Made by a program: the position numbers and the translations under genes. The notes below the pieces were generated by a model. The model was not told where the DNA came from. It did not search any database and was given only the letters and a program-made list of their open reading frames with translations. Source: Rhynchopus sp. YZ270_cl-10 (Eukaryota > Euglenozoa > Diplonemea > Diplonemida > Diplonemidae). From it: a stretch of 64,000 bases of DNA. The stretch is taken from positions 838,501-902,500 of the forward strand of contig OZ037853.1 of the NCBI GenBank assembly GCA_964035575.1, in the 5' to 3' direction. Shown here piece after piece: positions 12,998-51,661 of this stretch; position 1 is the stretch's first letter, and the number at the start of each line of letters is the position of its first letter.

Positions 12998-14435
12998 ATG
13001 ATACAGAGCGACACAACAATGGATTTGACAATCAAGGGGTGGAACGGAGTGAAGGATACGGTGGAGCTGGGTGAGGATGACACACCTGCGGTGATGCGTC
13101 GGAAGGTGGCGTCTGCAGTGGGGTTGCCTGAAGACGGCTTTGTGATGAGTTTCGGTGGGGTGGCGATGGACGAAGGATACGACATGACGCAGCTGAGTGC
13201 TGGAGACACGATAGTCCTGTCGACGACGACGAAGATGGAGGCCAGAGCAGCACTTCATGCGTTGGGTGAGACTGACATCACGGCTGAGAGGCTGAAGACT
13301 CCCGACGGCGGACCGCCCCCCATAGCACATTTTTGCGGTGCACGGGCGTACGGGATTAGTATCTTTTTTTGAGAGAACCCAAGAGCGGCCAGGTCCTGGA
13401 CAAGTACGTTGTGCTTTGAGACCTACAAACTGTCTGGGGTGGTGGGACCTCGGGGCGAAGGGTGCTTCCCGGGACCCCAATATCCTACCACAAGGAGCTC
13501 GAGTCGTGCATGGAATGCAGGGTACTCTGAGCCGATCACTTCCACAACTCCCAGATCCCAAGACCTCCACGGGGGGCAGGCCTCCACGGAAACCCGCGAC
13601 CGCCGACACCTTAGCTCCGTACTGCCTCTGTCTGTAACCTGCCGGTCCCCCACCTACCTACGCTTTTTGTGGTGTCTTTTTACGACGGTGGGGCTTTGCA
13701 GTGCAGTCAACGCCGACGGAGCGAGACTCGATTGTGACCGGGTGAAAAGGGAACCTTAGCCAGCGCTAACCAGCGGCAGTTTTGACTCAGGGAGGAGTTT
13801 CTCACCGCAGACTGGCGACACACCCCCACTTTTTCGGGGTGGCTGCATTCCTCTTCGGAACGGGGTGTTCCATCCTATTTTTAAAAACGTTTGGCTGAGA
13901 GGCTGAAGACTGTGAGGGATCCTGAGGTGGCGCGTTTACTTCTGCAGGCGGAGGTTGCGACGGTGATTCCTCTTGACTTCTTGCTGGAGGCATCGTTGAC
14001 GAGTCTTGATCTGAGTGCTGAGTCTGTTGTGACTCAAATTGGGCACAGCTTTCTTGCGGGCACTGCACTTCATTGACAAGCATCGACCTGTCTGGGTTGA
14101 TCCATGTTACACACATCGGCGACGGCTTCCTTGCTGGATGCAGGTCTTTGCGGACACTGGACTTAACGCCACTCAGCAGTGTCACACAAGTTGGACACAA
14201 CTTCCTTCATGGATGCAGTGCTCTGCGTACATTGGACTTATCTCCACTCAGCAGTGCCACAGAAATTAGCTCCTTCTGGTTTCTTGGTGCATGCACTTCG
14301 TTGGAGAGCATCTACCTCACCGGCTGCAGCGATGTTGTGTCGAGCGCCGTGAAGGGAGAAGAGCTGTGGCATTTAGTGGTTGAATCCCGTCCGAAACGCA
14401 GCAGAGACGAACCACTTGAGGAATCCCGCGAGTGA
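12998..14435 (+). pseudogene. Ubiquitin-like + LRR protein, copy B (interrupted by a 592-bp insertion)
   Basis: The ATG at 12998 gives the same MIQSDTTMDLTIKGWNG start as copy A. The ubiquitin-like half runs to codon RLKT at 13300, where a 592-bp retroposon-like insertion brings in a stop. The gene resumes at 13893 after a 19-bp target duplication and continues with LLLQAEVATVIPLDF and LRR units. Two extra bases near 14060, relative to copy C, shift the frame in the first LRR; the remaining repeats read on to VVESRPKRSRDEPLEESRE and a stop at 14435. At least two independent lesions make this a pseudogene. Copies A and B lie in tandem. Confidence 0.8.
13301..13892 (+). mobile_element. Site-specific retroposon-like insert in LRR copy B
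   Basis: The 592 bp start CCCGACGGCGGACCG and end CCTATTTTTAAAAACGTTT. They are flanked by the 19-bp duplication GGCTGAGAGGCTGAAGACT (13282-13300 and 13893-13911). Copy A has a single uninterrupted version at about 11394-11413, which is the empty site. The same sequence, with small indels, sits at exactly the same position in copy C. There are no terminal inverted repeats and no long ORF. A long, precise target duplication with no inverted termini points to target-primed reverse transcription by a non-LTR machinery acting in trans. Its strand is taken from the T/A-rich 3' end and is an inference. Confidence 0.85.
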
Positions 14436-15338
14436 CTGAGACACGTAGAGTGACGCCGCCAGCTGCGCACTGCGACCTCGAAGCTGCACGACCTCCCGCA
14501 AAGCACTGCAGAGAAATACTCATTTTTATTTTTCTACCTAGCGTGTCCGTTGCTTGTTTTTCTCACCGACACCTTTTTTGATAAAACAACTTGTTGTTAA
14601 TTCTAAAAATATTGGAGGAGCAGCGCTACGGAACCTTCCTCTTGCTGTGCGGGTGGATGTGGGTGTTGTAGAATACAGACCACTTCGTGTAGGTCGTTCC
14701 TACGTTTTGAAATGTGCATTCAGCAAGAACGCCGAGGGTCGTGCATCAAAGTGCAGAGGAGCTGGGGCACTGTCGCAAGAAAGGCACAGCTTTTTTGGAG
14801 AGCAAGGTTGAGGGGGTTCACAAAAAGCTCAAAAACCGTGACAAAAAAGAGTGCGATGAAATTATTTATTCATTCATCCGTTTACTGGGTGGGGGGCCGA
14901 CCGGGGTCCACTATTCGGCGAACCGACGAGTATTGACCCCCTATTTTAGGCTAATTTCGACGATTTGAGGCCGTTGAAACCAAAATTTGGCACTTTTAAC
15001 CACCTGTGGTGATCTATAAAAAACCCCCAAAAAAATACAAAAAAACCCCAAGGGTGTAAACCGCCCCCCTCCAACCCGTTTGGAAAAAAAACACTGCTTC
15101 CTCCAAAACATACCGTGGTTGGCATTTTCCGAGCAAAAAAGTACCACGCAAAATCTCTGCGCTGCAACAGAACCTGCTACGGTATCGGCTGGCACATGCA
15201 CTCACACTCCACCAAAAATATTTCTTCTCTACAGGCATCCACCCCCCTACACACCCACATCCCCCACCCCACCCCCTCCGCCCCCCCATCTTTTTGGTCC
15301 AACCTTTGCTTCACTTTCCTTTCCCCCATTTCTTCAGC
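14436..15338. other. Gene-free stretch before the coiled-coil gene
   Basis: Contains the LRR trailer (to ~14510), a partial copy of the GATAAAACAACTTGTTGT repeat (14565-14630), unmatched sequence, and a C-rich tract (15235-15290) just upstream of the next start codon. No gene is supported. The C-rich tract ending TTTCTTCAG right before the start could be a splice acceptor for an upstream untranslated exon. Confidence 0.45.
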
Positions 15339-16703
15339 ATGCCACCTGCGCTTCACGGTGACCTGGAGGATGCCTTCGACGCTGTGGCTGGGGAAGGCAG
15401 TTGGATGTCTTTTGTCGACTACATAGACCACCAGGGCGGGCTTGAGATTAAACCTGCTGAGGAATGGGTCCGGATGTGGGCAGCAAGATGGCAGGTCCGC
15501 CTGGATGACAACAAACAAATTCGCCTGACGAATATCGCCACAAAGCTGAAGGTAGCGAAGACTCATGGAAACGCCAATTTGATAGCGGAGCTGCGTGCGA
15601 CGATAAGCGCGATGAGAACCGCCCATAGCACCGAGGTGGGCAGGCTGACGCTCCAGAACAACGACCTCCAGACCGAACTCCAATTCATCCTCTCCGAGCA
15701 GAAAAGCATGCACGCACGCCGCGAAACGCAGCTGGCGCTCCTCCAGCAGGCTGTCGACGCACCGCCGCCACCAAGCTTTTGCCTGGAATGTGCCAACCGC
15801 GGCAAACATCTTCACTCTTCTTCACCTCGCAGCAGCACCCCACCCGCCTCCTCCTCCCTCCTTGGACGGGAGGTACGGAAGGCCCCAAAACGCCGCCCAC
15901 GACACGAAAACTCTGGCCCCCAACCCCGCCCCTTCTCTGTCCCTAGCAGCAAGGCACGATACATCAGACAGCACACCTCAGGGACAGAGCGCAAAAGCAG
16001 CCTCAGCGGTGCCGCCTCCTCCGCCACGTCCGAGGAGCAGATCTACAGCACCGGGGTCCGCGACCTGACCGAGCTTCTCCACAAACGCGAGACTGTCCAC
16101 GAGAAGACGCTGCACCAGAACCGCGCCCTCTCAGAAGAAGTAGGTGAATTGAAACACCGTGTGGCTGAGCTCGAAGACGAAGCAGAAGGCGCCAGACTTG
16201 CCACCAGCGACCGTGCTCGCATTGCCACCCTTGCCCACACCGCTCTCAAGCACAACGACGCTGCCAGAACGGACCTCGCTATCTTAACACGGGATCTCTT
16301 TGCACGCAGAGGGGACCGTTCATATGACGCGCAAGAACGCATCGGCAAAGTCCTCGACCTTGTCGTCTCAAGCGACAAATGCCTGCGGCACGTACTAGGC
16401 GCATTTAGCGATGTGGAATTAATGCACGCAGGTATAAGCTCCCTGCACCGCGCCCCCTCAATTAGAAAGGTCCCCGCCAGCCCCAAGCTGTCAAACAACA
16501 TCAGCGCGACTCACAAACGCGTAACCAGCCCGGCACGTCGACGGCTATTAAACAGCGGAAATGGGGGCACCACAACGCTCAATGGGCTGAACGGAAGCGG
16601 CACGATCTCCAGCAAACTAGGGATCAGGGTGACAAGTCCTGGCAGCTCTCCTCATAAGTCGCCAAAGTCACCAAAATCACCCACAATGAAAAAGGCCAGG
16701 TGA
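15339..16703 (+). CDS. Coiled-coil protein of unknown function (454 aa)
   Basis: A long uninterrupted GC-rich frame begins at ATG 15339 (MPPALHGDLEDAFDAVAGEG); the frame is open for 15 codons further 5' but has no earlier ATG. A predicted amphipathic/coiled-coil segment covers residues ~58-140 (many heptad L/I positions, e.g. LTLQNNDLQTELQFIL), then a low-complexity S/P/R linker (~150-230). A second coiled coil follows at ~240-290 (LSEEVGELKHRVAELEDEAE). The C-terminal third is basic, ending in repeated SPK motifs (SPHKSPKSPKSPTMKKAR) typical of cytoskeleton- or DNA-associated tails and of possible Cdk sites. One CxxC (CLEC) is present. I recognise no family; a cytoskeletal or basal-body scaffold is a guess. 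It has no introns and no visible lesions. Confidence 0.75.
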   Translation: MPPALHGDLEDAFDAVAGEGSWMSFVDYIDHQGGLEIKPAEEWVRMWAARWQVRLDDNKQIRLTNIATKLKVAKTHGNANLIAELRATISAMRTAHSTEVGRLTLQNNDLQTELQFILSEQKSMHARRETQLALLQQAVDAPPPPSFCLECANRGKHLHSSSPRSSTPPASSSLLGREVRKAPKRRPRHENSGPQPRPFSVPSSKARYIRQHTSGTERKSSLSGAASSATSEEQIYSTGVRDLTELLHKRETVHEKTLHQNRALSEEVGELKHRVAELEDEAEGARLATSDRARIATLAHTALKHNDAARTDLAILTRDLFARRGDRSYDAQERIGKVLDLVVSSDKCLRHVLGAFSDVELMHAGISSLHRAPSIRKVPASPKLSNNISATHKRVTSPARRRLLNSGNGGTTTLNGLNGSGTISSKLGIRVTSPGSSPHKSPKSPKSPTMKKAR

Positions 16704-19071
16704 AAAAAAATTGGAAGTGGTGTGATTGGAAGAAAAAAATCAGGTTTGTTTCAAAAAGCAAAAAAGGGTGTGCGTGGGGATGGGGAGGAGAAGGAAAAAA
16801 AAAGGAACAGTGAAAAGACGGTTGTGAACAATGGAAGACTACACTAGGCTAACATATTAGTATCAAAAAAAAGCATAAAAACAAAACAAAAACAAAAACA
16901 AAAACAAAAAAATGGGGGAAATGGTAATAATCTGTTGACATCAAAGGGGTTTGGGTATTGAAGGCGAGGAGGGGGGGTGGTTTGCTTTCTTTTATTTATT
17001 TTTTATTCTCTTTTCAGATGTGTATGCAAGTGAGCCACACTCATCTTTTCTTTTTTTAGGCAAAAAATTTTTTTCCAGGAAAGTTCCATAATTAGCTATC
17101 ACCCCTTTACCACTCAGGCGTAAAGCAACTATTTTTCAAACCCTTTCCCCCCTCAATCTTACTCCCGTACTCTCCTTTTCTCTCCCTTTTTCCCAGCGCT
17201 TTCTCTTGGGGGGGAAATATATTCGGTAGATACACTGTCATGAGCGGGCTGTTGTATTTCAGGTCAAACCGTTTTTCTTAGTGTCGAGTGTCCCAGAAGA
17301 GAAGGGCTTTGTGCGGAAACAATCAGCTTCGTGTGATTGTTTTATTTCGTTGATGGGGGAGCCTGCTTCACAACCTCCCTCGGGGGTAACCGTGGGCATG
17401 CCTAAGAAGTGCTCTCTGGGGTTCGATAACCCGCGGGAGAACCAGTACCTGCGTTTTCCCGCCGATGAACGGTGAGGAGAACGTTTGCACTTTCAACTTC
17501 TCATTTTTTTTCTTCGCTCATCATCTGGCTGAGTGGAAGCGGGAGTAGCACCATATCAGAATGTGAACCACGAAATAGTAGGTAGCAGCCGGTCATTGTA
17601 CCAAGGTACACTGTTCACGAGAGGGGCTTTGTATTTCAGGTCACCTTTTTTGAAGATGTACATGAAAATGGGACACCACCTCCTTTCAACGTTTCCCCTT
17701 TGTTTAAAAGCAGCTGGGTAAATTTGTGGGAAAATTTGCTCATTGTTTTTAAGGTGACTAAGCACGAGAGGCTTAGGTTCATCTTATAAACTTTTCTTTT
17801 TTTTTCGGGTGGGTTGTTGTGGAACTATCACAAAGCAGACGAGCTTTCGCGGCCTTCTTCTTCCCCCCCTTTTTTTTCTCCCCCCGGTCCAAATTTTACG
17901 GGGGGGTTTTTTTTTCCACCCAACATACTCAACACTGCTACAGTGTTCGAAATCCAGCGTAGTTTCGCAGCAAGGTATAACTTAGAGGTTGCACATCGCA
18001 AAACATTCCAAAAAAAAAAAAAAGCAAGGGTACATTTTTCGCACCCTCTTTGCTTTCTTTTCGTTTCGTTAAGAAAAGAAAGTATATGAAATAATTAGAG
18101 GCTGTATATCAATATTTAGTTCTCTTATTTTGAAAGAATCCCCTTTTTTTACCCGCGAAACAGAGCAGAGGACCCCAACCGGACCCTACATCACATGCCT
18201 AATTACCCTTGTGTTCGCAACGATCCCCATTTTCATCTGGCTGATGAGCGGAAGTGGGGAGTAGAGCATATCAGATGTAAACGAAATGGATTGTAGGACT
18301 GCATGGGTTTGGGTGTCCACCCCCGGTACAGCCGGGTCATTTGTACCAAAGGTACACTGTTCATGAGAGGGGCTTTGTATTTTCAGGTTAACTTTTTTTT
18401 TTATTTCTTCATCTTTTGAAAGAAATTGTGCGTGGTTACTACAGAGGCTGTTTTTTTTTTTTTACCCCCCCCCTGCATTTTTTCTTCTTGTGCTTCTCTT
18501 CACACATGGCGACGTTCAGGTGTCAACCTCACACGTTCAAAGTTGACCAAGCAACGTGATAAAGTTTATCTATGATAACTTCTTCTTCTTTTTCTTCCTT
18601 TTTTTTTCAACTTTCAAAGCGTAAAAATCGCGGGAATGTGAGTAAAGATGGAAGAAAAAGCTTTTCAAAAAAAATCCCTTATATAACAAGGGCCTGTTAC
18701 AAAAAAAAAACTTGGCTCGAAGTTTGTATTACCGACTGCTTCTTGTCCATACCAAGATAATATCTTAAACTTTGAAGCGTTTGCGTATTTGCACCCCGCT
18801 CGTCGTCACACAAAGCACAATAAGTAAGACTGCAGCCTTCAGGCCTCCCCTCAACCCACCCAATGAACCTATTTGTTACGAAACCCTTTTTTAAAATTGA
18901 TTTTTTTAAAATATTTTGCTGCAAAAAGGACTCTAGTATAGTCTATACAGGGGAGTCTGGCCGACTCTGCCAGACTCAAGACACCCACTTTTTTTTTTTT
19001 TTTTTTGAAAACTTGGTTGTATTAGTGTAGCCACCCTAGAGTGTGCTCCACTATACACTTTTTTTTTTGAC
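16704..19071. repeat. Gene-free stretch with SINE-like GGTTCGATAACCC repeats
   Basis: After a short 3' region with an (AAAAAC)n run (16880-16910) come several dispersed repeats. At 17360-17475 lies a ~115-bp unit with ACCGTGGGCATGCC, CTCTCTGGGGTTCGATAACC and ACCTGCG, copied at 35440-35560. GAGCGGAAG/GAGTGGAAG units (17525 and 18235) are followed by TACCAAGGTACACTGTTCA copies (17600 and 18347). A GTGACTAAGCACGAGAGGCT unit is at 17755. No convincing gene. Confidence 0.5.
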
Positions 19072-19079
19072 TTTTTTTC

Positions 19080-19377
19080 CAGGCTCTCCGCTAGGATTTC
19101 CGATTTTGAAAATATTCTGTTGATGGTCCACGTTGGTGGGGTACATGCTTGCGCCGCAGGCGCACGGTACGCAACTTTTTTTTTTACCAACGCCCGATTT
19201 TGACTTTTTTGGGACGTTTGAGGACTCACCTCTCCATATCTTCTTCTCCTGAGCTTTTTTGACAGGTAGAACGGGTCTAAACCACTTAGCAGAACTTTTT
19301 TTTTTTTTCTTTTTTTCCCCATTTTCAAAAAGTTCTGTTGACAATCAACAGAACTTTAGTACCTAGCGGAGTGCCTG
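19080..19377. mobile_element. hAT-type MITE (298 bp), copy 1
   Basis: Ends are CAGGCTCTCCGCTAGG at the left and CCTAGCGGAGTGCCTG at the right. The 8 bp TTTTTTTC flank both sides (19072-19079 and 19378-19385), fitting a hAT-type duplication, though in a T-rich context. Inside are the GCGCCGCAGGCGCACGGTAC hairpin box and, near the right end, a palindrome AGTTCTGTTGACAATCAACA. The near-identical copy 2 follows directly, and copy 3 is at 58640-58936 inside the EF2 intron. Confidence 0.85.
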
Positions 19378-19384
19378 TTTTTTT

Positions 19385-19682
19385 CAGGCTCTCCGCTAGG
19401 ATTTCCGATTTTGAAAATATTCTGTTGATGGTCCACGTTGGTGGGGTACATGCTTGCGCCGCAGGCGCACGGTACGCAACTTTTTTTTTTACCAACGCCC
19501 GATTTTGACTTTTTTGGGACGTTTGAGCACTCACCTCTCCATATCTTCTTCTCCTGAGCTTTTTTGACAGGTAGAACGGGTCTAAACCACTTAGCAGAAC
19601 TTTTTTTTTTTTTCTTTTTTTCCCCATTTTCAAAAAGTTCTGTTGACAATCAACAGAACTTTAGTACCTAGCGGAGTGCCTG
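19385..19682. mobile_element. hAT-type MITE (298 bp), copy 2 in tandem
   Basis: Differs from copy 1 by about one substitution in the central part (GAGCACTCACC versus GAGGACTCACC). The two copies share the T-rich junction, so this is either a second insertion into the first copy's flank or a tandem duplication. The small divergence suggests a recent event. Confidence 0.85.
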
Positions 19683-21903
19683 CTTTTTTTTTCTGACTTC
19701 TGAAAGTCAAGAAAAAGTCAAAGAAAAATTCATCAAAAGTCTAGCAGCAGAGTCGACCAGACGAACCATCGCATGATAGTTACTGCAAAAAAATAAGCAT
19801 TGTGGAGTTCATCCTCGGGTGTCTACACTAATCCAGCCAACTTTTCGAAAAAAAACCCCCCAAATAAGCTAACACAACGAATATCCAAGTAATGAAAGAC
19901 ATAACGAAAATTTTATATTGAGAGTGTTTTTTTTTCTAGATAGTTGAAGACTTTCGACGGCATAAAAAGAAGGATGGGATCATTTTTGATCCCTATACCT
20001 ATGCTATCAATTTATTGATTGCATATGTTGAAATACTAGATAGGTGAAGGCTGTGTCTGGAGGGCTACACTAAAACTCAGATACAAAAAAGGGGATGGAA
20101 GCGGGAAGAGAGCACATCATGTGAACTGCGAAATCCATTAGTTAGGTCTATCACGGTTTTTTTTGTGGTCGTGCACAAAAAAAAAAAATCCCCCCCCTAT
20201 TAGCCCCAAGTCGGTTCTTAGGCGATTGTCGACACAAACAAAAGAACTTTATGTCAGCGCATGTAAAGTGATCGTCGATACAACAACAAAAATAATGGAA
20301 ACTCATCTTCGGGTGTTTACGCTTTACTACAAACCAAGTTTTCAAAAAAAAGGTGGATATTTGCACAAAACTGTGGCAACACAACCTGAGGCAAACTACG
20401 CTACAACGATTTATCAAAAAAAAGAAAAGGCGTGCGGGATGTGTCCCCATCTGCGTGTTTTTCCCCCTCTCCTTGTTTTCTTAGTATTACTATACAAGGG
20501 TGTGTCCAAGCACTCATGTAAGACTTCCCCCCTGGGGAAGAAAAAAAATTTTTTTTCTCATAAAATTTGCTCTCAAGGGTTCAGGGTGAATGACGTCCTT
20601 CAGTAGTACAAAAGGCTTCGGCCAACATTGAGTACAGACCCTATTAGCCTTAAGTGGGTTCTCATGCGATTGTTGACAGCAGCGAAAAATGTTTGCAAGC
20701 AGGTTTGCAGTTTTCAAGACATGGTTTCTTTTCTTTTTTATCTTTCCCACCATGCGATGCCTTCTTCGCCCGTAGTGGTGTTTCCCCCTCTCCCTGAGTA
20801 CAGTTTCCGTGCAGGCAACTCCCAATATGCAACACTGGGGTTCGATAACACCCCCCCCCGCGGAGTGTCTTTACCTGCGTCGTGGAAGTGTTTTGACACA
20901 TATCAGGAGGGATTGTGTGCACTCCCTCCGTTCCGTCGGCGCCCCTTCGCTCATTGGATTCAGACGTCCAGTGTTGTGTTCCAGGATATGTGTTTTTTTT
21001 TAAAGGTGGCTAAGCACGATCATCTTATAAACTTTTCTTATTTTTGGGTCTTTAAACCAATGTTATCACCCCTTCCCAATCAGGACAAGGAAATGACTGT
21101 GTGCCTTGCTTACAGTTTTCCGTGCAGGAAAACTCTCAAAATGCAACACTCCAGGGGTTCGATAACCCCGCGGAGTGTCTTTACCTGCATCTCAGAGGTG
21201 TTTTTGCACTACTTCACTTTTTTAAGAAATGCTTTCTGTAAAGATGACCAAACAACGAGAGTCCTAGGTGTTTATCATTATAAACATTTTTTTTTAAATT
21301 TGCGCTACCCCTAAAATCCTCTCTTTTTAAAAGGATGCTTTGTGTTTTTATTTTAGGTGACTAAGCACGACAAGCTTATCTTCATCAATTTGATCCAACT
21401 TCTCCATGCAGGAATGCTTTGTGTTTTATTCTCTCTTTTTTTTTTTTTTTTTTTTTTGTTTTCTGTATCCCCCCGCTTGCGAGTTTGTCGGCCGCCTTAT
21501 TGCCCAGTTTCCCCGCGTGGGAGAGGGGATGTAGTGCAGTGTGTGTATGAAACAAAACAAAACAAAAAATTGCCGTCAAAGATAGTTGCGAAAAAGAACG
21601 CAGATTCCATTTGAATCTCTTCCTGATGGTAACAAAAAAAAAATATAGTGGAGTTCATCCTCGGGTGTCTACACTAAAACAACCAAGTTTTCAAAAAAAA
21701 ACCAAAAAAATGTGCATCACACACTCTACAACAGCAACTACAGCCCCCTTACCCTCATCCTCATCCTCGCCTCACCCTCTGTTATTTCTGTTCCGTACAA
21801 AAAAAAAGGGGGGGGTATTTTCATTTTCTCTAGACAGTGTTGGATGCAGTTACGACATTCCAGGATCTGTTGTGGAGGGGGGGGGCCCCTGGGGGGGGGG
21901 GGG
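19683..21903. repeat. Dispersed repeats without supported gene
   Basis: Includes an AAAGTCAAGAAAAAGTCAAAG segment (~19700, related to 36000), copies of the TGGAGTTCATCCTCGGGTGT repeat (19798, 20300-20410, 21648), a CAATTTATTGATTGCATATG unit (20008; also 29570 and 34538), two SINE-like units with GGGTTCGATAAC (20818-20900 and 21120-21215), and GTG(A/G)CTAAGCACGA units (21004 and 21357). Open frames here, up to 228 codons, run across these repeats and are not supported as genes. Confidence 0.5.
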
Positions 21904-23489
21904 TAGGGGCCGCAGTCCCCTAAGGAAATTATGTAACAATAATTCATTTTGCCACTTTTTGGCGTATAGTGGCCACAACCTGCAGAGAACCACCCCAGAA
22001 TAGGTCAGAAACACCCTGTGAGGCAAAATTGGGTGAAAATTCGACTCCAGAATGTGAAAAAATGGGAAAAAATAGCAAAAAACTGGCTTTTTGGGGGTTT
22101 TGGCCATTTCGGCCAAAACCCCGATTTTTCATGAAAAAACATGAAAAAAACACCAAATTCGATGTTTCAGAGAGTCATTTGAGACCTATTTTGCCCCAAA
22201 AACGTGCTTGGAGTCCATTCTCGCCTGTTTTTCACATTTTTACGCCTTTTCTTTGGTGAATTTGGCCAAAATTTGGTCAAAATGACCCCCTGTCCACCCC
22301 CTGTCTACCCCCTGTCCAAGGCCAGGATTTTTCCCCTGGCCATCACATAAAGTAGGGTATGGTGCAAATTTTGGTACATACCCCCCCAAAAAATGGTCTG
22401 CGGACCCAACGGAACCGTTTTTTTACCCTTTGGAGGACTCAGAAGCACTAGAAATGGGGAAAATGAGTGAAAAATTGCCCTCCCCCCCAGAGAGGGGGGT
22501 AGGGGCGGTTTTTGGGCTAAAAAATGCCAAATTAGGGCCGCCAGAGGCCTCTTGGGGTCACTCTCCTGTGGAAATCGTACTCCTAGGGGTCCTGTGGGCC
22601 TGATTTCGACGAGCTGCACCCTTTTGGGCCCCCCGAACCGATCTTGGTTTGAAATATTGAGTCGAATATGACCCCTGGACAGGGGGTAGACAGGGGTCAT
22701 TTTGACCTCAAAACACCAAAAAGCGGCCAAAAAAAGTACCTAAAGTGTCCAAAACAGGTCGGAATAGACTCACGGGACATCCCTGGGGTAGTTTTGTGTC
22801 CAAGCAGCTGTCATGATGTCGAAATTTTACAATTTTTTTGAAAATTTGGTCAAAAATGGTCATTTGTCCCAAAATGGCCCAAATGGCCGTTTTGTGCTTT
22901 ATTTTCCATTTTTTTTGTGTTTCTGGTAATCAGTCACCCAAAAAAGAGGACACATTTTTGCCATACCATACATATTTGTTCGGTTCCTCCCATTTTTTGT
23001 GCAATTTTTCGTGTTTTTTGCATTTTTTTTTGCATTTTTTTTGACCAAAACTTAGTGAAACTTAGTAAAACTTAGTAAAACTTAGTGAAACTTAGCAAAA
23101 TTTAGTGAAACTTAGTGAAAATTTGCTGGAAAAACCCCCAACAAAACCATTTCTTGAGCGGAATACCCCCCTGTATGGGTAATTGTGGTTGAAAATAGGT
23201 GCCTAGAATATGTTCTGAGTGGTTTTGGGGGTGAAATAGCCCCAAATACCCCCACAAAGCAAAAAATGTGCCAAAATTGGCCATTTTGCCCCAAATGGCC
23301 AAAAAGGCTGAAAATCCTATTTTTTCACACTTTTTTCACTTTCTGAGGTGCCAAACCATGAAATTCTGGGTCACACTGCCCCGGAAACCTATTCTGGGTG
23401 TCAGACACACCCTGAGGTGCCCACTAGATGCCCAAAAAATGACGAAATAATTATTGTTACATAATTTCCTTAGGGGACTGCGGCCCCTA
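21904..23489. mobile_element. 1.6-kb TIR element inserted in poly-G
   Basis: Both ends carry the inverted repeat TAGGGGCCGCAGTCCCCTAA continuing GGAAATTATGTAACAATAAT, at least 45 bp in all. Runs of G in the same orientation lie outside both ends (about 21889-21903 and 23490-23511), as expected if the target and its duplication were poly-G. The interior is AT-rich with many GGCCAAAA phrases and holds a second inverted pair, ACCCCCTGTC repeats at 22281-22318 versus 22670-22708. A tandem AAACTTAGTA array lies at 23047-23125. No transposase frame is visible. Part of the interior (from 22733) is copied just 3' of the retrotransposon at 57831. Confidence 0.75.
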
Positions 23490-23511
23490 GGGGGGGGGGG
23501 GGGGGGGGGGG

Positions 23512-32648: not shown

Positions 32649-33470
32649 TATCTCTTACATTTGTGTGCGATTATTTTTTGTCCGTATTAGTTAATTTGGA
32701 TGCAATGGAAACCCGTTGTGATAAAAATTTGTGGGAGGTGAAATGTAATTGCCTGCCAGGGGTTGTGTTGCCACAGTTTGTGCAATGTCCATATTTTTTT
32801 TTTCCTACTGTTTTTCTTTTTTCTTTTTGGGGAGGTGGGGAGGTGTGGGGGTATTTCCTGAGGCTATACATGGTCCCAGCGAGGGAAAGGGGGGGGTGAA
32901 GGCTTACACTCAGAGGAGCATTAAAAAAAATTTTTTTTTTGATAAAACAACTTTGTTGTCACTTCTAAAAAAGATTGGAGGAGCAGCGCTGCAGGCCCAA
33001 ACAAAACGGATTGGAAAAAAAGACAGAAGCGTGCTTGTTTTCTTTGAGTACTCAAGTAGCCATCACAACCATACTTCAGTTTAACACATTTTTTCACCTT
33101 TTTGTTTTCCCGGCTTTGAGCGCAGGGCGCGCGCTAAATCCACACCCTCACACCCGGTTTTTTCGAGGTTTTTTCGCGGTACAAAAATTTTTTGATTACA
33201 CGATTTCCTTAAGAAAATCAGAGAATCCCATGTTGTACAGTAAGGGCACTTCAGATAGTTTTTGGACACACATGTGACCCCACCGTGGAGAGCAATCGGC
33301 TCGCGCAATCAAAAGAAAGCAGAGAAAAGGGGAAAGAAAAAAGAAAAAAGTTGGGTACCGTGCGCCTGCGGCGCTACCTGTTCCCTACCCCCCCATGATG
33401 TACTTATGTATATTCCACCTGATTTTGACCATGTTTGCCGGTGTTTTCCGGTGTTGGCCGATGAAGTCAC
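32649..33470. repeat. 3' flank and dispersed GATAAAACAACTT repeat
   Basis: 32930-33130 is a close copy of 12085-12270, downstream of LRR copy A: it shares GATAAAACAACTT.GTTGT, AAAGATTGGAGGAGCAGCGC, TTTGAGTACTCAAGTAGCCA and TTTAACACATTTTT. At 33343-33373 lies an inverted copy of the GCGCCGCAGGCGCACGGTAC hairpin box. No gene is supported. Confidence 0.55.
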
Positions 33471-33477
33471 GGTAATG

Positions 33478-33742
33478 GGTACTGTGTACTGTGTACTGTG
33501 TACTGTGTACTGTGTACTGTGTACTGTGTACTGTGTACTGTGTACTGTGTACTGTGTACTGTGTACTGTGTACTGTGTACTGTGTACTGTGTACTGTGTA
33601 CTGTGTACTGTGTACTGTGTACTGTGTACTGTGTACTGTGTACTGTGTACTGTGTACTGTGTACTGTGTACTGTGTACTGTGTACTGTGTACTGTGTACT
33701 GTGTACTGTGTACTGTGTACTGTGTACTGTGTACTGTGTACT
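33478..33742. repeat. 7-bp microsatellite (TGTGTAC)n, about 38 copies
   Basis: A perfect array of TGTGTAC spans about 265 bp with no visible unit variants. All three forward frames stay open and read YCVLCTV repeats, which is a by-product of the 7-mer. The uniformity implies recent expansion. A short related patch (GTACACAGTACACAGG) lies at 48244. Confidence 0.97.
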
Positions 33743-36184
33743 GGCTGTCCGAAAGACCTGAAAATGACCCTTGTTTACGAGTATGGGTTCATATTTTGTG
33801 AAAATTTAAGTCACCAAAATTTTGTCTATTTTTCCGTATATCCCCCACCACAGCCCGGGATCTTATCGGAAATGTAACATGACCCTGATTTTTCTACCCC
33901 CCCTTCACATACTTCCTGTAGGTACATTTTTTTGGACCCGATATCCATTTTTTCGGGAAATTTCCGAAAAGTTAGCGCGCGCCCTGTTTGAGCGTACAAA
34001 CAAAAGACCCGATCTTTTTTTTTTTAAATATGCACAAACGGCCTTCGGGTGTCAACAATGAGTAGAAGACCTTGAGCAGGTGGCATAGGTATACGGATAA
34101 AGATGGAAAAGTGCATGTTAACCCATTTTATCTCTGCGCTCTGCAGACGAGGTGTTTGGAACCTCTTGGAGTCTCTCAACTGTTTTCTGTTCTCTTTTGA
34201 ATTGAACAAAACATGATTTTTCCCTTTTTTCCCTATACTTTTTCCATTTTTTTTTCTCTTCTTTTTTCTCTTTCCCCCCTTTTTTTCTTCTCAGTGCCTG
34301 CGTCCAGAAAGCGCTTGCACTCTTTAACGCCGCATCGTTTTCAATCTAGCTGGGTGTGTGTGTGTGTGCAACCCTATTTTTTTGTCATAAAATCAAAAAA
34401 AAAAAAAGCAAAATTCTTTTTTTTATGTCAAACTGGGTCTGCCATTGTATGTGAATAGTCAGTTATGTGCATTATATAGCACGACGATTGTCTTTTTGGA
34501 TAGGTGCGTTCTAAATCAGTTTTTTTTTTTACTATCAATTTATTGATTGCATATGATGAAAATACTTTTTATTGGGTGTGATTACCTCAGATTGGATGAT
34601 TGTTTCAGGATTTTTCTCGGAAGTTCGACCTTTTTTACGGTCGATAATTTTTACGATTACGGTAACTCAGATCGGATGATTGCCAAGATATATGTTTAAA
34701 CGCAGTGGATAGATATTGCCGAAGAATTGAAACATTTCTCAATCAAGTCTGTGTGTCTGCACAAAGCTTGTACTCATTTCCCTTGAACCATTTCAGGAGG
34801 CAATGCAGCAACAAGGTCTCAACCACAGTAATAAAATAAACCATCACAATGGTGTGGCTCAAAACCCCTCAAGTACACAAAAATAATCACAAAAGAGAAG
34901 TGCAAACAAATTACACTTTATTTTTGGGATGAGCCCACACCATCAAACAGAAAAAGAATACTCACCTGTTTTTTCCTGAAATTTTTGGTAGTGTTTGGTG
35001 GTGGTTACATACCACCGAACTCCTCCAAACGCTGCCAAATTTTCAAGCAAAATCCGGTGAAAAAATAGTAAAAAAAAAACCGAGGTTTTTGCGGGTTTAC
35101 GGATTTTTGCATAAATTTGTGTACCGCTTAGAACCCTGCGGTCCGTGTTTAAGAGTGCCTTGTGCACGATGCTGCCAACAGAGGGCGCTGAAGCACATCC
35201 TCGTTTGTTCGACATGGACTTCAAGAAGGCTGCTACATTTCAAATTCGAATTTTTCCTCCCTCAAGGTGACTAATCTCTAGAGATGCATATTTACAAAAA
35301 AAAAACAAAAAAAACAAAACAAAAAGGATCCAAAAATACAACAAAAAAAGATTAATGCATAACCAATGTTCAAAACATTAAGTAACCTAATCAGACTAAT
35401 CTCTAGAGGCTTAGGTTCATCTCATAATTTTTTTTCCCCTGCTTCACAACCTCCCTCGTGGTAACCGTGGGCATGCCAATGAAGTGCTCTCTGGGGTTCG
35501 ATAACCCGCCGGGGGAACCAGGACCTGATGAACAGTCGAGGCGTTCTGCACGTCCAACTTCTCTTTTTTTGGATGTGTTGTGGTACACGAGAAACACATT
35601 CATCTTTCAAGCTTTTCTCTTTTTTTTTTTTCTTTTTTGATATACTGTTCTTCACTCCACCCCTCCACATTTTCGATTGATGTGCTCGTTCTAGCTGTTG
35701 TTTGATAGTGTAAACAGAGGCGTTCAGCGTACTTTGGGATAGAGTGCAGAGCCCGTGTCTGCAACCACTATCACGTATGAGGCAACCGCATGTTTTCAAC
35801 TTCACATTTTTACCCCCTCTTCAAGTTCCCCTGCGTCCACCGGTGTGCGGTGAGGCGTTTTGCACTTTCAACTTCTCTTTTCTGTTCTGTTCCAAAAAAA
35901 AATTATACCCACTTACATTAGGTAGTATGGACCGACTGTTCCAGACTCAAGACAGCCAAACTTTTGGTTTTTTTTTGTTGACTTTTCAAATTTCTGGAAA
36001 AGTCAAGAAAAGTCAAAATAAAGTCAAGAAAAATTCAGCATTTTTTTTTCAAAAAAAAGTCTGGAACGCAGCGTGGGCCAAGACTACCATGTATGCCTAC
36101 ACTACTTTTTTTCAGTTGCGATTCCCAATTCCTCCCACCACCCCCCCTACTGATTTCACAGAGCTTGGCTAATTGTGGGGCGCT
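33743..36184. other. Gene-free stretch with dispersed repeats
   Basis: Holds a GAGCG.ACAAACAAAAGACCCG fragment (33989; also 12262), a CAATTTATTGATTGCATATG unit (34538), SINE-like units (34290-34330, 35440-35560 and 35828-35880) and an AAAGTCAAGAAAAGTC segment (35990-36030). Open frames are short and cross these repeats. Confidence 0.45.
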
Positions 36185-36573
36185 TCCCTAGGCATATCCC
36201 GCAGGCGAATTCTTAATTCGTTATTGGACCATATTCGCCCTCTATTCGGATCCGAATACAGTATTCGGATCCAAGAATTTAGGGCGAATATGGTTCAAGA
36301 ATTTTGGGATCCGAAAAGAGGGCGAATATCATATTCGCCTGTTTTCTTCTTTATTCGCCCTTTTTTCGGATCCGAATACAATATTCGGATCGAATATAGG
36401 GCGGATATGTATTCACCTTCTGGGTATGCCTAGGCATACCTAGAAAGCGAATATGATATTCGGCCTATATTCGGATCCAAAATTCTTGGGCCATATTCGG
36501 CCTATATTCGGATCCGAATATAGGGCGAATATAGGGCGAATAAGCATATTCGCTTTCTAGGTATGCCTAGGGA
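36185..36573. repeat. Fold-back element built of GAATAT/GGATCC palindromes
   Basis: Ends are TCCCTAGGCATA at the left and TATGCCTAGGGA at the right. A central GGTATGCCTAGGCATACC palindrome at about 36423-36440 divides it into two fold-back halves. The body is a patchwork of ATATTCGGATCCGAATA and TAGGGCGAATA units in both orientations, so the whole 389 bp could fold into a cruciform. No ORF and no clear target duplication. Confidence 0.7.
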
Positions 36574-39386
36574 GGTCCTACACATGACTTAACCAAGTTT
36601 TCAATAAAGTGCGCCGAGTTTCGCCTCTCCACGGGTCGAACAAATGGTATATCGAGCCTCCCCATATCAGCACCCCTCGTATTTTTTTTTTTAGTTTTTT
36701 TTTTTTCCCTTCTTTTTTGTTGTCTCTCTCTATATTTTCAGTGACGTGTTTTGCATCCACCCTTAAGGGTGGCTGCACGATATCAAATTCACTTTCTGTA
36801 ACGACTTAAAAAAAACTCCCCCCAGCTCGACTTCCATCTCGTCTGTGCATCCAAAAAACGGACATCTGTTTTTTGGTTTGGATATAATCAACGAAGAAAT
36901 AACACAAAAATAAAAAAAACAAAAACAACACAGGCTTCGACACCCTTGTGATATACAGACTCCAACTACCCACCAGCGAGTACTTTTTAGGTGATTGTCG
37001 ACAAAATAGAAACACTCATCACACGATAAAACCCATGGAAAAGGTTGTGAAATGCACACACAAAGTGTGAAAAAAAATAATATGTGACTTCTGGGGTTGA
37101 AGGGCGATCTCTGTTCTATACCTGTAGTACAAAAAGGCTTCGGCCGCACAGTGAGTACATATTGTTTTAATACCACCGAGGTGTGAAGTGAGTGTCGACA
37201 CAAAAAAGAAAAAGAAACAACAGCAAGCTCAACCATTATTTACACGTCGTTCCCTTTCTCTTTCCTGGACGGTTATTAAGACAACCTTTTTGTGCTACGG
37301 ATCCCGTTAAGAAAGAGTGACCGCCGTGTGGGCCCGGGTATCTGGGTATCTGGGTATCTGGGCACCTTGCCAGAGGAAGACTTACGTGAGCATCAGGAGG
37401 GAGGGTCACATCAATCCTTTTCAATTCGTTTCTGTTGATGTGCGTGCACAGAGATGCGGTGCAGTTATTTTTCTTCTTCAAATGGTCTCTTTTCTCTCTC
37501 TCTCTCTCTCTTTAACTGGTGTCCTTTCTTGTGTTTCTTTATTTTTCTTTATGCGTGAATCCCCCAGTGAACCGTTTGGGACCCCCCTGATGCCTAGACG
37601 GATGTGGCTAGCGTTGTGATGTTTGTCTGTAGCATAGCAAAGAATGAAGAGAGACTCTGGGTCTCATTGGCGTCTGTTGTTCTCAAGAGTTATAGGAGGT
37701 TCGTCGTGCTCGTATGGTTTGCCTCAGGTTGCACAGCTGCTTTGTGCATGAGGGGGTTTTTGCTTCTTAGGGACATCCTGTGAAGAAAGAATGTTGCTAT
37801 CTGTGGAGGTTCTCTAGAATCAAACAAAATTTTTTTTAGGTACATGCAATGTGTGAATGCATCAAAGCAAAGCAAGAGCGATCAAAAAAGGAAAGACACA
37901 ATCATACTTTATCTTTCTTAAGTGCCTCAGTTTATGTACAAAAACAGCCAGTGGAGAGATTGCACAAAACTGTGGCAACACAACCAAGGCAAACTACACT
38001 ACTCCAACAATTTATCAAAAAATAATAATAAAAAGGTTGGTGCCCGCTTGGTTTTTTGTTCTCCCTCCATGCCTGGGCAGCTCGATCTTATTTTTTTGTT
38101 TTTGTTTTGTTTTTGCCTAATTTTGGGTCATTTTACAAAATCGAGTAGTGTCATCGCGTTTCCCCGGCATGCCTACAATGCATGAAAATAAATAGTGGAG
38201 CGCAACCCTAGCCTCTAGACTAGGGTGGCTCCACCAATACAACCACAATGCCAAAAATAACCAAAAAAGGTGACAACTGTGTAAAAAGGCAAACACCCTC
38301 AATCAGGCTACTCTAATACAACCAAGTATTCAAATAAATGAAACAACCTGCGGAGCGAATGCAATAAGCAAGGGAAAAAAAAAACAACAACTCATTTCCC
38401 CCTCATTTTATTTTAGTGGCTTAGCACCAGAAGATTAGGGTTAGTTGATGATTGCATTTGCTCTCTCTTTCTCGTACTGTTTTTTTTTTTGGTGACTAAG
38501 CAGCGAGGGGCTTAGGATCGTCTTATTATTTTTTTGTGCATCCCATTATATCCAAACTGTCAGTCTGTTTCTATTTTTTTTTTCTTCGTTTCTGCTTGCG
38601 TTCTTCCTCTCCCCCCCACCTCCCCTTTAGTTGCCTTCGTAGCGCTTCACAGTATTACTGACCACAACAAAAAAGAGGGGCAGCTTTCTACTTCATTTTT
38701 CTTCAATTTGTTACAGCAAGAGTTCCATTTTTCCTAAGGGGTCGAATATCAAGAAAGGGTTGGGAAATGGGGGGGTTTTCAGTTCTCCCTCGAATATAAG
38801 AAAGGCGCCCAACACACAGTCTACTTTTAAAAAAAAAAAGTTTGGGTTCATTTCTTAATGCACCCTATTACGTCGTCTATTGAATAGAAAGCACCGACCC
38901 TCCCCCCGTGAAATTGTCCGGAATATGAAATAACTTTTTCCGCAACACTACTTTGTGAGCGGAAAAGTGTTGTGCCGTTACAATCCAACTGTGCTCCGCA
39001 ACACTACCACACAAGACATACCAAGCACACCCGTAAGCCCAGCCAGCAAGCTGACTGGGCGAACCGTAGGTACTGGCCATAAGGCTCAAACCCTCGGAAC
39101 AACAAGGCCAGCAGATGGGAGATAGTGTGTGTGTGGAAGCGTCAAAACGCGTTGCACAACTACAAGGAGGGAGGTGAGGGAACGGCAAGTGGCGTCTTTT
39201 CTTCAGTCTCAGTGATTGACACATCATGGAAGGACTGTCCCCCTGAAAGGGTGCTGTTCACATTAAACAATAGAAAATATGTGTTCATCCATTTGTGTGG
39301 CTGTGCTTCTCCACACTCCATTTGTGAGTGCTAATAGACCCCACTCTGACCCGCCACCATGTAAAGTACAGAGCGACACAAAAACA
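36574..39386. other. Gene-free stretch before LRR copy C
   Basis: Contains GTGACTAAGCAGCGAGGGGC units (38415 and 38492), TGGCAACACAACC repeat copies (37970 and 38205) and, at 38930-39170, an inverted copy of the dispersed repeat carrying ACTACTTTGTGAGCGGAAA and TGTGTGGAAGCGTC (other copies 25030-25130 and 42770-42985). A (TC)n run is at 37494-37512. No gene is supported. Confidence 0.45.
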
Positions 39387-41235
39387 ATGGATTTGACAAT
39401 CAAGGGGTGGAACGGAGTGAAGGATACGGTGGAGCTGGGTGAGGATGACACACCTGCGGTGATGCGTCGGAAGGTGGCGTCTGCAGTGGGGTTGCCTGAA
39501 GACGGCTTTGCGATGAGTTTCGGTGGGGTGGCGATGGACGAAGGATACGACATGACGCAGCTGAGTGCTGGCGACACGGTTGTGTTGACGAAGGTGACGA
39601 AATACGAGGCCAGATCAGCACTTCTTGCGTTGGGTGAGACTGACATCACTGCTGAAAGGCTGAAGAGTCCCGACGGCGGACCGCCCCCCATAGCACATTT
39701 TTGCGGTGCACGGGCGTACGGGATTAGTATCTTTTTTTGAGAGAACCCAAGAGCGGCAGGTCCTGGACAAGTACGTTGTGCTTTTAGACCTACAAACTGT
39801 CTGGGGTGGTGGGACCTCGGGGCGAAGGGTGCTTCCCGGGACCCCAATATCCTACCACAAGGAGCTCGAGTCGTGCATGGAATGCAGGGTACTCTGAGCC
39901 GATTACTTCCACAACTCCCAAGACCTCCACGGGGGGCAGGCCTCCACGGAAACCCGCGACCGCCGACACCTTAGCTCCGTACTGCCTCTGTCTGTAACCT
40001 GCCGGTCCCCCACCTACCTACGCTTTTTGTGGTGTCTTTTTACGACGGTGGACCAAGGGGCTTTGCAGTGCAGTCAACGCCGACGGAGCGAGACTCGATT
40101 GTGACCGGGTGAAAAGGGAACCTTAGCCAGCGCTAACCAGCGGCAGTTTTGACTCAGGGAGGAGTTTCTCACCGCAGACTGGCGACACACCCCCACTTTT
40201 TCGGGGTGGCTGCATTCCTCTTCGGAACGGGGTGTTCCATCCTATTTTTAAAAACGTTTATTTGCTGAAAGGCTGAAGAGTGTGCAGGATCCTGAGGTTG
40301 CGTGTTTGCTTCTGCAGGCGGAGGTTGCGACGGTGATTCCTGATGACTTCTTGTGGGAGGTATCGTTGACGCGTCTTGATCTGAGTGCCGAGTCTGTTGT
40401 GGCTCAAATCGAAGGCGGCTTTCTTATGGCGTGCACTTCATTGACAAGCATCGACCTTTCTGGGTTGATCCATGTTACACACATTGGCGACTGCTTCCTT
40501 TCTGGATGCAGTGCTTTGTGTACACTGGACTTAACACCATTCAGCAGTGTCACGCAAATCAAGTCCTGCTTCCTTGCTGGATGCAGTTCTTTGTGTTCAC
40601 TGGAGTTAACATCACTCAGCAGTGTTACACGAATTGGACACAGCTTCCTTTATGCTTGCAGTTCTTTGCGTACACTGGACTTATCACCACTCAGCAGTGT
40701 CACAGAGATTAGCTCCTTCTTCTTTCTTTATGGATGCACTTCGTTGGAGAGCATCTACCTCACCGGCTGCAGCGATGTTGTGTCGAGCACAGTGAGGGAA
40801 CAAGAGCTGTGGCATTTAGTGATTGAATCCCGTCCGAAACGCAGCAGAGACGAACCACTTGAGGAATCCCGCAAGCGACTGAGACACGCAGAGACGCCGC
40901 CAGCTGCGCACTGCGACCTCGAAGCTGCACGACACACACCCTCACAGGCCACTCCTCCCGCAAAGCACTGCAGGCAACAGAGCTGGAAACGCTGCTGCAG
41001 CGGCTGCGGGCGGGCAGGGGTGTCTTATGCGACGGCGACAGGCGGCTGGCCAGGGGTGTGCACAAAGGGCGGAACGGTGTTTTGTGTTTCTTTGTGTTTC
41101 TGCCTCTCGCCCTCCTCTTTGCCTTGCTTACATCAAATATCCAAAGACTCTCCCCACATCCCTTCCCCACTTTTTATTGTACTTCATCAGGAGCATGATC
41201 TGATATGGGATTTCTCAAGCGAGGATTCGGTCTGA
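39387..41235 (+). pseudogene. Ubiquitin-like + LRR protein, copy C (interrupted by a 593-bp insertion)
   Basis: The first ATG of copies A and B is followed here by a TAA, so the start is the internal ATG 39387 (MDLTIKGWNGVKDTVELG). The ubiquitin-like half reads to RLKS at 39669, where the 593-bp insertion starts and soon adds a stop. The gene resumes at 40263 and reads through seven LRR-like units without a break, the longest LRR array of the four copies (SLTSIDLSGLIHVTHIG, CSSLCSLELTSLSSVTRIG). Two bases missing near the normal end (CGCAGAGACG versus CGCAGAGTGACG in copy D) remove the usual stop, so the frame runs on to 41235 with a Cys-rich tail. A truncated ubiquitin-like product and a separate LRR product could still be made. 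Confidence 0.75.
39670..40262 (+). mobile_element. Site-specific retroposon-like insert in LRR copy C
   Basis: Same element as 13301-13892, differing by a few substitutions and two small indels, with the 3' end extended to ACGTTTATTT. Flanked by the 19-bp duplication TGCTGAAAGGCTGAAGAGT (39651-39669 and 40263-40281). This is the copy-C version of the target: both sides differ from the copy-B duplication at the same three positions. Matching variant duplications argue for two independent insertions at the same nucleotide. Confidence 0.85.
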
Positions 41236-51415: not shown

Positions 51416-51661
51416 TCACCATAGGGGGTGTGACTCCCTATAGTTTTTAAAAATGTTTTCCTGGCATGTTTTTGAGGTGGTTTTGTGAGTTGGCGGGGAA
51501 ATTTGGAACTATCTGGGCTCCCGGAGTGCTTTTTCGGGGGGTTTCACCCATTTTTTGGCCCACATATTGGTCCAGAAGGGACAAACGGTGTCTTGCGATT
51601 AGTATAGGCTATCATAGGACGTTTTTTACCACAAAAACACCAAAAAACGACCAAAAAAAGT

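What the first reader, a model, noticed from the sequence alone, without database searches (positions are those of the whole stretch)
13282..40281. A 592/593-bp retroposon inserted at the identical nucleotide of two LRR genes
Inserts at 13301-13892 and 39670-40262 are near-identical and sit at the same codon of two paralogues. Each is flanked by a 19-bp duplication in that gene's own variant (GGCTGAGAGGCTGAAGACT versus TGCTGAAAGGCTGAAGAGT). Copy A shows the empty site. If insertion had preceded gene duplication, the two halves of each duplication would not share copy-specific changes. So the element appears to hit this protein-gene target repeatedly, like R2 at rDNA or SLACS at spliced-leader genes, but at a multicopy LRR family.
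Basis: partly seen in the sequence, partly recalled or inferred. Interest (0 to 1): 0.88.

Follow-up and report, generated by a model that had tools for sequence, protein, structure and literature searches.

The report
Retroposon pair targeting one LRR-gene site
In this protist genome a short retroposon, and a long self-sufficient relative that shares its tail, repeatedly insert at one exact position inside a large family of protein-coding leucine-rich-repeat genes, a kind of target that the papers we read do not list for such site-specific jumping elements.

Summary
The 592-bp insert is a SINE-like retroposon. Of 61 copies complete at both ends with both flanks read, 54 sit at the same nucleotide of the LRR gene family with 18-22-bp duplications, 2 show LRR sequence on the 3' side only, and 5 lie elsewhere. 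In a strict subset of 36, left and right duplications match exactly in 30; shuffling gives 1.4 on average. Insert and host-gene divergence are uncorrelated (Mantel r=0.005), against one old insertion spread by gene duplication. The predicted autonomous partner exists: a 7.36-kb APE-type LINE at the same nucleotide with an exact 19-bp duplication, sharing the insert's last 57 bp (94.7%). It begins with an HDV-ribozyme-like match (Rfam E=8.4e-6, below the curated cut-off). ORF1 is open from base 1 and carries a ubiquitin domain upstream of its first Met; ORF2 carries OTU, endonuclease and RT domains. Where the junction is complete, ORF1 continues the host reading frame. A second, 1.4-kb non-autonomous class exists. 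Inferred mechanism: co-transcription with the LRR mRNA, ribozyme release, target-primed reverse transcription. I judge it a new variant of a known kind: a site-specific LINE/SINE pair with a protein-coding target.

The parts
13301..13892 (+). SINE-like retroposon copy A (592 bp)
13282..13300 (+). target-site duplication of A, left copy
   Evidence: 19/19
13893..13911 (+). target-site duplication of A, right copy
13836..13892 (+). 57-bp 3' tail of A shared with the autonomous partner (94.7%)
13019..13300 (+). LRR gene A, first 94 codons, weak ubiquitin-like similarity; read on into the SINE it ends after 23 more codons
39669..40262 (+). SINE-like retroposon copy B (591-bp core + ATT)
39650..39668 (+). 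target-site duplication of B, left copy
   Evidence: 19/19
40263..40281 (+). target-site duplication of B, right copy
40203..40259 (+). 3' tail of B, the part shared with the partner
   Evidence: position carried over from A
39387..39668 (+). LRR gene B, first 94 codons
40282..41235 (+). LRR gene B, LRR part cut off from its start by the SINE
   Evidence: LRR_5 1.2e-11
11016..12142 (+). paralogous LRR gene with the empty target (insertion point about 11410/11411)
51660..57482 (+). another reverse-transcriptase ORF (1940 aa) of a different element, poly-A tailed; examined and rejected as the partner

Best explanation
A site-specific LINE/SINE system. The 592-bp insert is a non-autonomous retroposon mobilised by a 7.36-kb APE-type non-LTR retrotransposon that recognises its 3' tail. 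SHOWN: both classes, and a third 1.4-kb class, sit at one nucleotide of a large LRR gene family; the SINE copies carry 18-22-bp duplications in each locus's own spelling, a precise 5' end, and a 3' end that varies by a few nucleotides. INFERRED: the partner's endonuclease nicks the bottom strand at the left edge of the future duplication, reverse transcription is primed there from the RNA's 3' tail, and the top strand is cut about 19 bp away at a codon boundary. INFERRED: the element RNA is made as part of the LRR gene's transcript, and an HDV-like ribozyme at the partner's first base frees a precise 5' end. ORF1 must start upstream of its first AUG because its ubiquitin domain lies mostly before it; the simplest source is the host gene's own start codon, with which it is in frame at complete junctions, but non-AUG initiation is not excluded.
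For: Target and duplications: (54 of 61 at the site; strict set n=36 with 30 distinct left 16-mers; exact left-right match 30 of 36 against a shuffled mean of 1.4, maximum 6). Independence: (48 first or single copies: mean SINE distance 0.69%, mean host distance 23%, Mantel r=0.005, 915 of 2000 permutations at least as high). Re-insertion: tandem copies. Partner: (7360 bp, exact 19-bp TSD, shared 57-bp tail); domains (RVT_1 6.9e-22, ubiquitin 9.6e-9, OTU 2.2e-7, Exo_endo_phos 3.4e-6, these four above the curated cut-offs). Its 5' end occurs 26 times with up to 2 mismatches; by their 5' flanks 22 of 26 are at the LRR target. Ribozyme: (RF02682 positions 1-74 of 74, starting exactly at element base 1). 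ORF1: open from base 1 in 8 of 8 copies read; first Met is residue 83, inside the ubiquitin domain; codons 1-105 dN 0.029, dS 0.104 between two subtypes. Tail-only copies outside the target with duplications of their own (L097, L108, duplications judged by eye) fit reverse transcription from the 3' end.
Against: 5 of 61 complete SINE copies (L001, L002, L008, L020, L103) and 4 of 26 copies with the partner-type 5' end (L067, L078, L080, L090) lie outside the LRR target. The ribozyme score (37.8) is below Rfam's gathering cut-off (44), its E-value is for a search of only 262 bases, and a plain fold of the 67-nt stretch is no better than shuffles (z -0.97; that program draws no pseudoknots). No ribozyme was found in the SINE's own 5' end, so how its precise 5' end forms is unexplained. 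An intact host start codon in frame was seen at only 3 of 8 partner copies (C3, C4a, C4b; the last two have the same host sequence); C5 and C62 are out of frame by one lost G, C7 and C20 sit behind a SINE, and C96 lies in frame in a gene whose start is missing. C96 has a duplication with 3 of 19 mismatches. No RNA or protein data were available.
Confidence: 0.9

Rival explanations
1. One insertion happened in an ancestral LRR gene and was spread by gene duplication and gene conversion.
For: A few loci share both flanks (L001/L002, L028/L052, one L092 pair); some upstream halves are 97-99% alike while downstream halves are not, so recombination among these genes does occur; a few loci have mismatched duplications or unrelated 5' flanks (L006, L033, L050, C96).
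Against: Left and right duplications share locus-specific variants (30 of 36 exact, shuffled mean 1.4). SINE and host distances are uncorrelated. Nearly identical SINEs sit in very different hosts: 371 of 515 pairs with SINE distance <=0.4% have host distance >=20%. Tandem insertions and off-target copies with their own duplications exist.
Confidence: 0.03
2. The element is a mobile intron or homing-type insertion (group II intron or homing endonuclease) rather than a LINE/SINE pair.
For: One fixed position in a protein gene family; ends at a codon boundary.
Against: 18-22-bp target duplications, variable 3' junction nucleotides, 5'-truncated and off-target copies; Rfam finds no intron in the window stretch 13201-14000; the partner carries RT plus an APE-type endonuclease.
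Confidence: 0.02
3. The SINE is mobilised by a different autonomous element, for example the reverse-transcriptase ORF in this same window (51660-57482).
For: That family is abundant and recent (20 of 24 scored places 99-100% identical), and its C7 copy lies in a satellite array that abuts a SINE copy in an LRR gene.
Against: It has a poly-A tail, a different 3' end and no similarity to the 7.36-kb partner at E<=0.01, and the two copies whose flanks were read (window and C7) sit in other repeats, not at the LRR nucleotide. The 7.36-kb element shares both target and tail.
Confidence: 0.04

Closest known systems
R2 (28S rDNA) and its short non-autonomous SIDE relatives
   Same: Strict site in a multicopy gene; HDV-like ribozyme at the element's 5' end; short relatives move to the same site (PMC3774820, PMC3414825: abstract starts seen in search listings 52 and 62).
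   Different: Target is a protein-coding gene family; endonuclease is APE-type by Pfam; separate ORF1 with a ubiquitin domain, plus OTU. That R2 uses a restriction-like endonuclease is from PMC4640811 passages and recall.
L1Tc/NARTc, ingi and SIDER elements of trypanosomatids
   Same: Euglenozoan; long elements with short relatives; HDV-like ribozyme at the 5' end (PMC4035085: passages); APE-type endonuclease (recalled).
   Different: No poly-A tail; strict LRR target; ubiquitin and OTU domains; the SINE shares only the 3' tail, not the 5' end.
SLACS/CZAR/CRE in spliced-leader genes
   Same: Target-specific element in a multicopy gene of a euglenozoan (recalled; spliced leader exons are listed as targets in PMC4640811).
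   Different: Different target and different endonuclease type (recalled).
R1 and Tx1 clades (APE-type target-specific LINEs)
   Same: APE endonuclease plus target specificity (PMC4640811 passages).
   Different: The targets that paper lists for site-specific LINEs as a whole are RNA genes, spliced leader exons and repeats, no protein gene family; RT phylogeny with this element was not tested.

Membership tests
SINE (LINE-dependent short retroposon) | 3' tail shared with an autonomous LINE | tested here: met
   57 bp at 94.7% with the partner
SINE (LINE-dependent short retroposon) | target-site duplications and 5'-truncated copies | tested here: met
SINE (LINE-dependent short retroposon) | head derived from a known small RNA with a Pol III promoter | tested here: inconclusive
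   no Rfam ribozyme or small-RNA match above chance in the window stretch; promoter boxes not tested; 72 of 77 places of a body pattern lie at SINE spacing from an exact SINE end, 5 were not read, so no source gene was found
Target-specific non-LTR retrotransposon | most copies at one nucleotide of one multicopy target | tested here: met
   SINE 54 of 61; partner and 1.4-kb classes 22 of 26 by 5' flank
R2/CRE group (RLE-type) | C-terminal restriction-like endonuclease | tested here: not met
   Pfam finds an APE-type Exo_endo_phos domain before the RT and nothing of the kind after it; no separate model of the restriction-like enzyme was run
R2-like life cycle | HDV-like ribozyme at base 1 of the element | tested here: inconclusive
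   RF02682, E=8.4e-6, 37.8 bits against a cut-off of 44, full model, exact start; no cleavage assay
L1Tc/ingi (I-type) LINEs | APE + RT + RNase H | tested here: inconclusive
   APE and RT met; RNase H gave no Pfam match in this protein, and the tail that aligns to P0002's RNase H has lost three of four catalytic acids (positions recalled)
L1Tc/ingi (I-type) LINEs | poly-A tail | tested here: not met
   ends ...TTTTTAAAAACGTTT in the partner and the SINE
L1Tc/ingi (I-type) LINEs | RT phylogeny places it in the clade | not tested
   no named reference RT set was used; nearest hits P0002-P0005 carry no organism names

The most novel reading that the evidence does not exclude
The partner is a host-start-hijacking LINE. 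It cuts the LRR gene at a codon boundary so that its ORF1, open from its very first base, is translated as an in-frame continuation of the host gene's ubiquitin-like leader. The embedded ubiquitin (ending RLRGG) is then the processing signal that the element's own OTU protease (or host deubiquitinases) cuts to free the ORF1 protein, while the ribozyme diverts part of the same transcript into precise-ended genomic RNA.
Probability: 0.35. Interest if true: 0.92.

Novelty: new variant of a known kind. Interest (0 to 1): 0.82.

Why it matters
Target-specific LINEs are described in the papers read here as choosing RNA genes, telomeric repeats, transposons and microsatellites, with high copy number and conservation as the reason (PMC4640811; PMC3706591; passages only). 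A strict protein-coding gene-family target would show that copy number and conservation matter, not RNA genes as such, and adds an APE-type enzyme that uses a fixed site in coding sequence. It also offers a natural LINE/SINE system with three size classes at one site, useful for dissecting what the RT needs in the RNA tail, and a testable link between insertion at a codon boundary, translation from a host start codon, and ubiquitin/OTU processing.

Tried and rejected
The RT ORF in the window (51660-57482) was the first candidate partner. Rejected: its C7 copy starts with a spliced-leader exon, lies in a 406-bp satellite (period) and ends in poly-A. Against this rejection stands that the satellite array holding it begins at the truncated 3' end of a SINE copy in an LRR gene (L045); I read that as a later insertion.

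The 7.4-kb distance between a SINE 5' end and 3' end on C7 looked like an autonomous element but is a SINE interrupted by a nested 6.8-kb insertion with a USP-like protease (L044; the USP reading is by eye).

A putative large insertion at C3:2120409-2122994 was two separate LRR genes (L053, L054).

Ribozyme in the SINE 5' end: none found by Rfam in the window stretch, fold no better than shuffles.

Rows dropped before counts: L003 (same locus as window copy A); SINE matches not complete at both ends or cut by the end of the fetched stretch; 6 of the 54 LRR-site copies (second tandem copies or without the upstream motif) from the Mantel test, leaving 48. The strict n=36 used expressions for both LRR flanks. 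I assigned the other 18 LRR-site copies from their printed flanks: 12 adjoin another insert (L012 x2, L014 x2, L034 x2, L073, L076, L088, L092 x3) and 6 are LRR variants that the expressions missed (L019, L022, L030, L039, L113, L114). One search prints 54 after leaving out the seven loci that I named by hand, so it is not an independent count. In one search a pair counted as one event if both flanks (up to 1 kb, but only about 50-150 bases for many later loci) matched at >=97% over >=60% of the shorter one; the script's printed label says 80%.

Not obtained: the count of empty sites. A gapped pattern search did not complete three times, so occupancy is only bracketed by 76 exact 3' ends against 846 and 733 half-site matches.

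Full report
CHECK. The paralogue at 11.0-12.1 kb shows the empty target. The host gene encodes a 94-residue N-terminal part with weak similarity to ubiquitin (Pfam E 0.001-0.003, below the curated cut-off) followed by BspA-type LRRs. The insert sits between codon 94 and the next codon; reading on, the protein ends after 23 insert-encoded residues.

THE GENOME-WIDE PICTURE. The window lies in a 152-Mb, 126-contig genome. The 3' 25 bases of the insert occur exactly 76 times, a 27-base stretch at its 5' end 62 times, and an internal pattern 77 times with up to 2 mismatches; 72 of those 77 lie at SINE spacing from an exact SINE end and 5 were not read. Patterns for the two halves of the LRR target match 846 and 733 places (only the first 100 of each are listed). 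I read flanks for 61 copies complete at both ends: 54 are at the LRR site with an 18-22-bp duplication; L006 and L033 have LRR sequence on the 3' side only; L001, L002, L008, L020 and L103 are elsewhere, L008, L020 and L103 with duplications of their own. In the 36 copies that pass strict tests on both flanks, the last 16 bases of the left and right duplications are identical in 30, against 1.4 (maximum 6) when right sides are shuffled between loci; there are 30 distinct left sequences. In those 36 the 3' junction carries 0-5 extra bases, mostly 2 or 3; the 5' end is constant.

INDEPENDENT INSERTIONS. Among 48 first or single copies the inserts differ by 0.69% on average while the 48 host bases upstream differ by 23%, and the two distances are uncorrelated (Mantel r=0.005; 915 of 2000 permutations as high). 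Three pairs of loci look like copies of one event (both flanks >=97% over >=60% of the held flank; many later flanks are short). Several sites hold two inserts in a row, which needs a target regenerated by the first (L012, L014, L034, L088, L092; order inferred). Recombination does touch these genes (upstream halves sometimes 97-99% alike, downstream halves not), and a few loci have mixed flanks, but it does not account for this pattern.

THE PARTNER. Unpaired target halves on C3 led to an element of 7360 bp at the same nucleotide with an exact 19-bp duplication. It shares with the 592-bp insert only the last 57 bp (94.7%; nothing else at E<=0.01). Its longest frame, 2310 codons in this copy, carries ubiquitin, OTU, endonuclease/exonuclease/phosphatase (APE-type) and reverse transcriptase domains, and a zinc-binding RT motif below its cut-off. 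Seven other copies (C4a, C4b, C5, C96, C7, C62, C20; ORF2 held only in part for all but C4a) show two frames: ORF1 (498-519 codons) from base 1, and a second frame overlapping its end. So the single fused frame of the C3 copy is the exception. Two ORF1 types (57% identical over residues 1-480) are joined to ORF2s of about 99% identity, a sign of ORF1 exchange. The OTU segment matches solved OTU deubiquitinases (best E 1e-4), and the ubiquitin segment aligns to ubiquitin through the C-terminal RLRGG. The RNase H-like tail has lost three of the four catalytic acids that homologue P0002 keeps (motif positions recalled).

CLASSES. The partner's 5' end occurs 26 times with up to 2 mismatches; I read the 5' flanks of all 26. 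Nine are of the partner type (one of them, L090, by eye) and 17 carry a one-T-shorter 5' end, which puts ORF1 out of frame. The one copy of that class read to its end is L050: 1409 bp with 133-bp tandem repeats and the common 3' tail. 22 of 26 are at the LRR target, three of them directly behind a SINE (C7, C20, C21:1520 kb); L067, L078, L080 and L090 are elsewhere. 3' junctions were read for C3, C5, C96, C62 and C7: duplications exact in C3 and C7, exact but for the overlapping G in C62, one mismatch in C5, three in C96.

MECHANISM. The first 69 bases of the partner match the whole of Rfam's F. prausnitzii HDV-like ribozyme, starting exactly at base 1 (E=8.4e-6 for 262 bases searched; 37.8 bits, below the gathering score of 44). 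By analogy with R2 and L1Tc (PMC3774820 search listing; PMC4035085 passages) this would free element RNA from a host co-transcript and explain the precise 5' ends of that class; it is not shown by experiment. The SINE has no recognisable ribozyme. ORF1 is open from base 1 in 8 of 8 copies, and the ubiquitin domain begins about 48 residues before the first Met (residue 83), with lower amino-acid than synonymous divergence between the two types (codons 1-105: dN 0.029, dS 0.104; few changes, no test of significance). Translation must therefore begin upstream of any AUG of the element if that domain is made. At complete junctions the frame is that of the host gene: C3 and C4a/C4b (identical host sequence) run from the host ATG into ORF1; C96 is in frame but in a host gene whose start is missing; C5 and C62 lost one G at the junction and are out of frame; C7 and C20 lie behind a SINE. 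Fusion translation is thus attractive but carried by few independent cases; non-AUG initiation remains possible. The chance that the phases agree is one in three.

ORGANISM. The spliced-leader-like 34-mer CGATTTCTAAAGCTACAGTTTCTGTACTTCATTG occurs 722 times with at most one mismatch; many of the 100 listed places lie in clusters 0.4-0.8 kb apart. With my recollection of diplonemid leaders this points to a diplonemid; no call names the organism. The Diplonema papillatum genome paper (passages) reports about 2500 retroelement gene models and a 39-bp spliced leader; 'leucine-rich' does not occur in its main text.

COMPARISON AND NOVELTY. It works like R2 (site in a multicopy gene, ribozyme, short hitch-hikers) but is not RLE-type by Pfam, and like L1Tc/ingi (APE, ribozyme, euglenozoan) but lacks poly-A and is site-specific. 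Known targets listed in the papers read are RNA genes, spliced leader exons, transposons, microsatellites and telomeric repeats (PMC4640811 passages; PMC3706591 passages). My searches of the held library found no LINE targeting an LRR gene family (one paper, a Leishmania genomics review seen in the listing only) and no paper holding both 'non-LTR retrotransposon' and 'ubiquitin-like domain'; other searches. Subscription papers and Repbase entries were not searched, so priority is not certain.

Noticed in passing
window 51660-57482; L046, L047 (C7:1591201-1600900): A separate, abundant and recent RT family (20 of 24 scored places 99-100% identical). The C7 copy begins with a spliced-leader exon (partly doubled), sits in a 406-bp satellite and ends in poly-A; by eye its C-terminus resembles a restriction-like endonuclease and it has OTU-like motifs.
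   Followed up: partly
L001, L002 (C100 and C71): Two copies identical to window copy A are followed by GGCTGA, the first bases of A's own duplication, and then an (AGTACAC)n satellite, as if A's read-through transcript had moved (3' transduction). The two loci look like duplicates of one event.
   Followed up: partly
C3:1085614-1085647 (-) upstream of L050: A spliced-leader exon is encoded about 24 bp before where the LRR start codon is expected, suggesting that this LRR gene copy is itself a retrocopy of a trans-spliced mRNA (the stretch between was not read).
   Followed up: no
L059, L063, L079, L073 and others: ORF1 of the partner comes in two types (57% identical) joined to nearly identical ORF2s, suggesting exchange of ORF1 between elements.
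   Followed up: partly
P0001 and L059, last ~150 residues: The partner's RNase H-like domain has lost three of four catalytic acids that are present in P0002 (positions recalled).
   Followed up: partly
L044 (C7:1663183-1671017): A 6.8-kb element with 122-bp tandem repeats and a ubiquitin-specific-protease-like ORF (by eye) is nested inside a SINE copy.
   Followed up: no
L057, L068, L083: Several LRR gene copies share the same unrelated sequence just upstream of a truncated LRR start, suggesting another recurrent rearrangement or insertion in this gene family (by eye).
   Followed up: no
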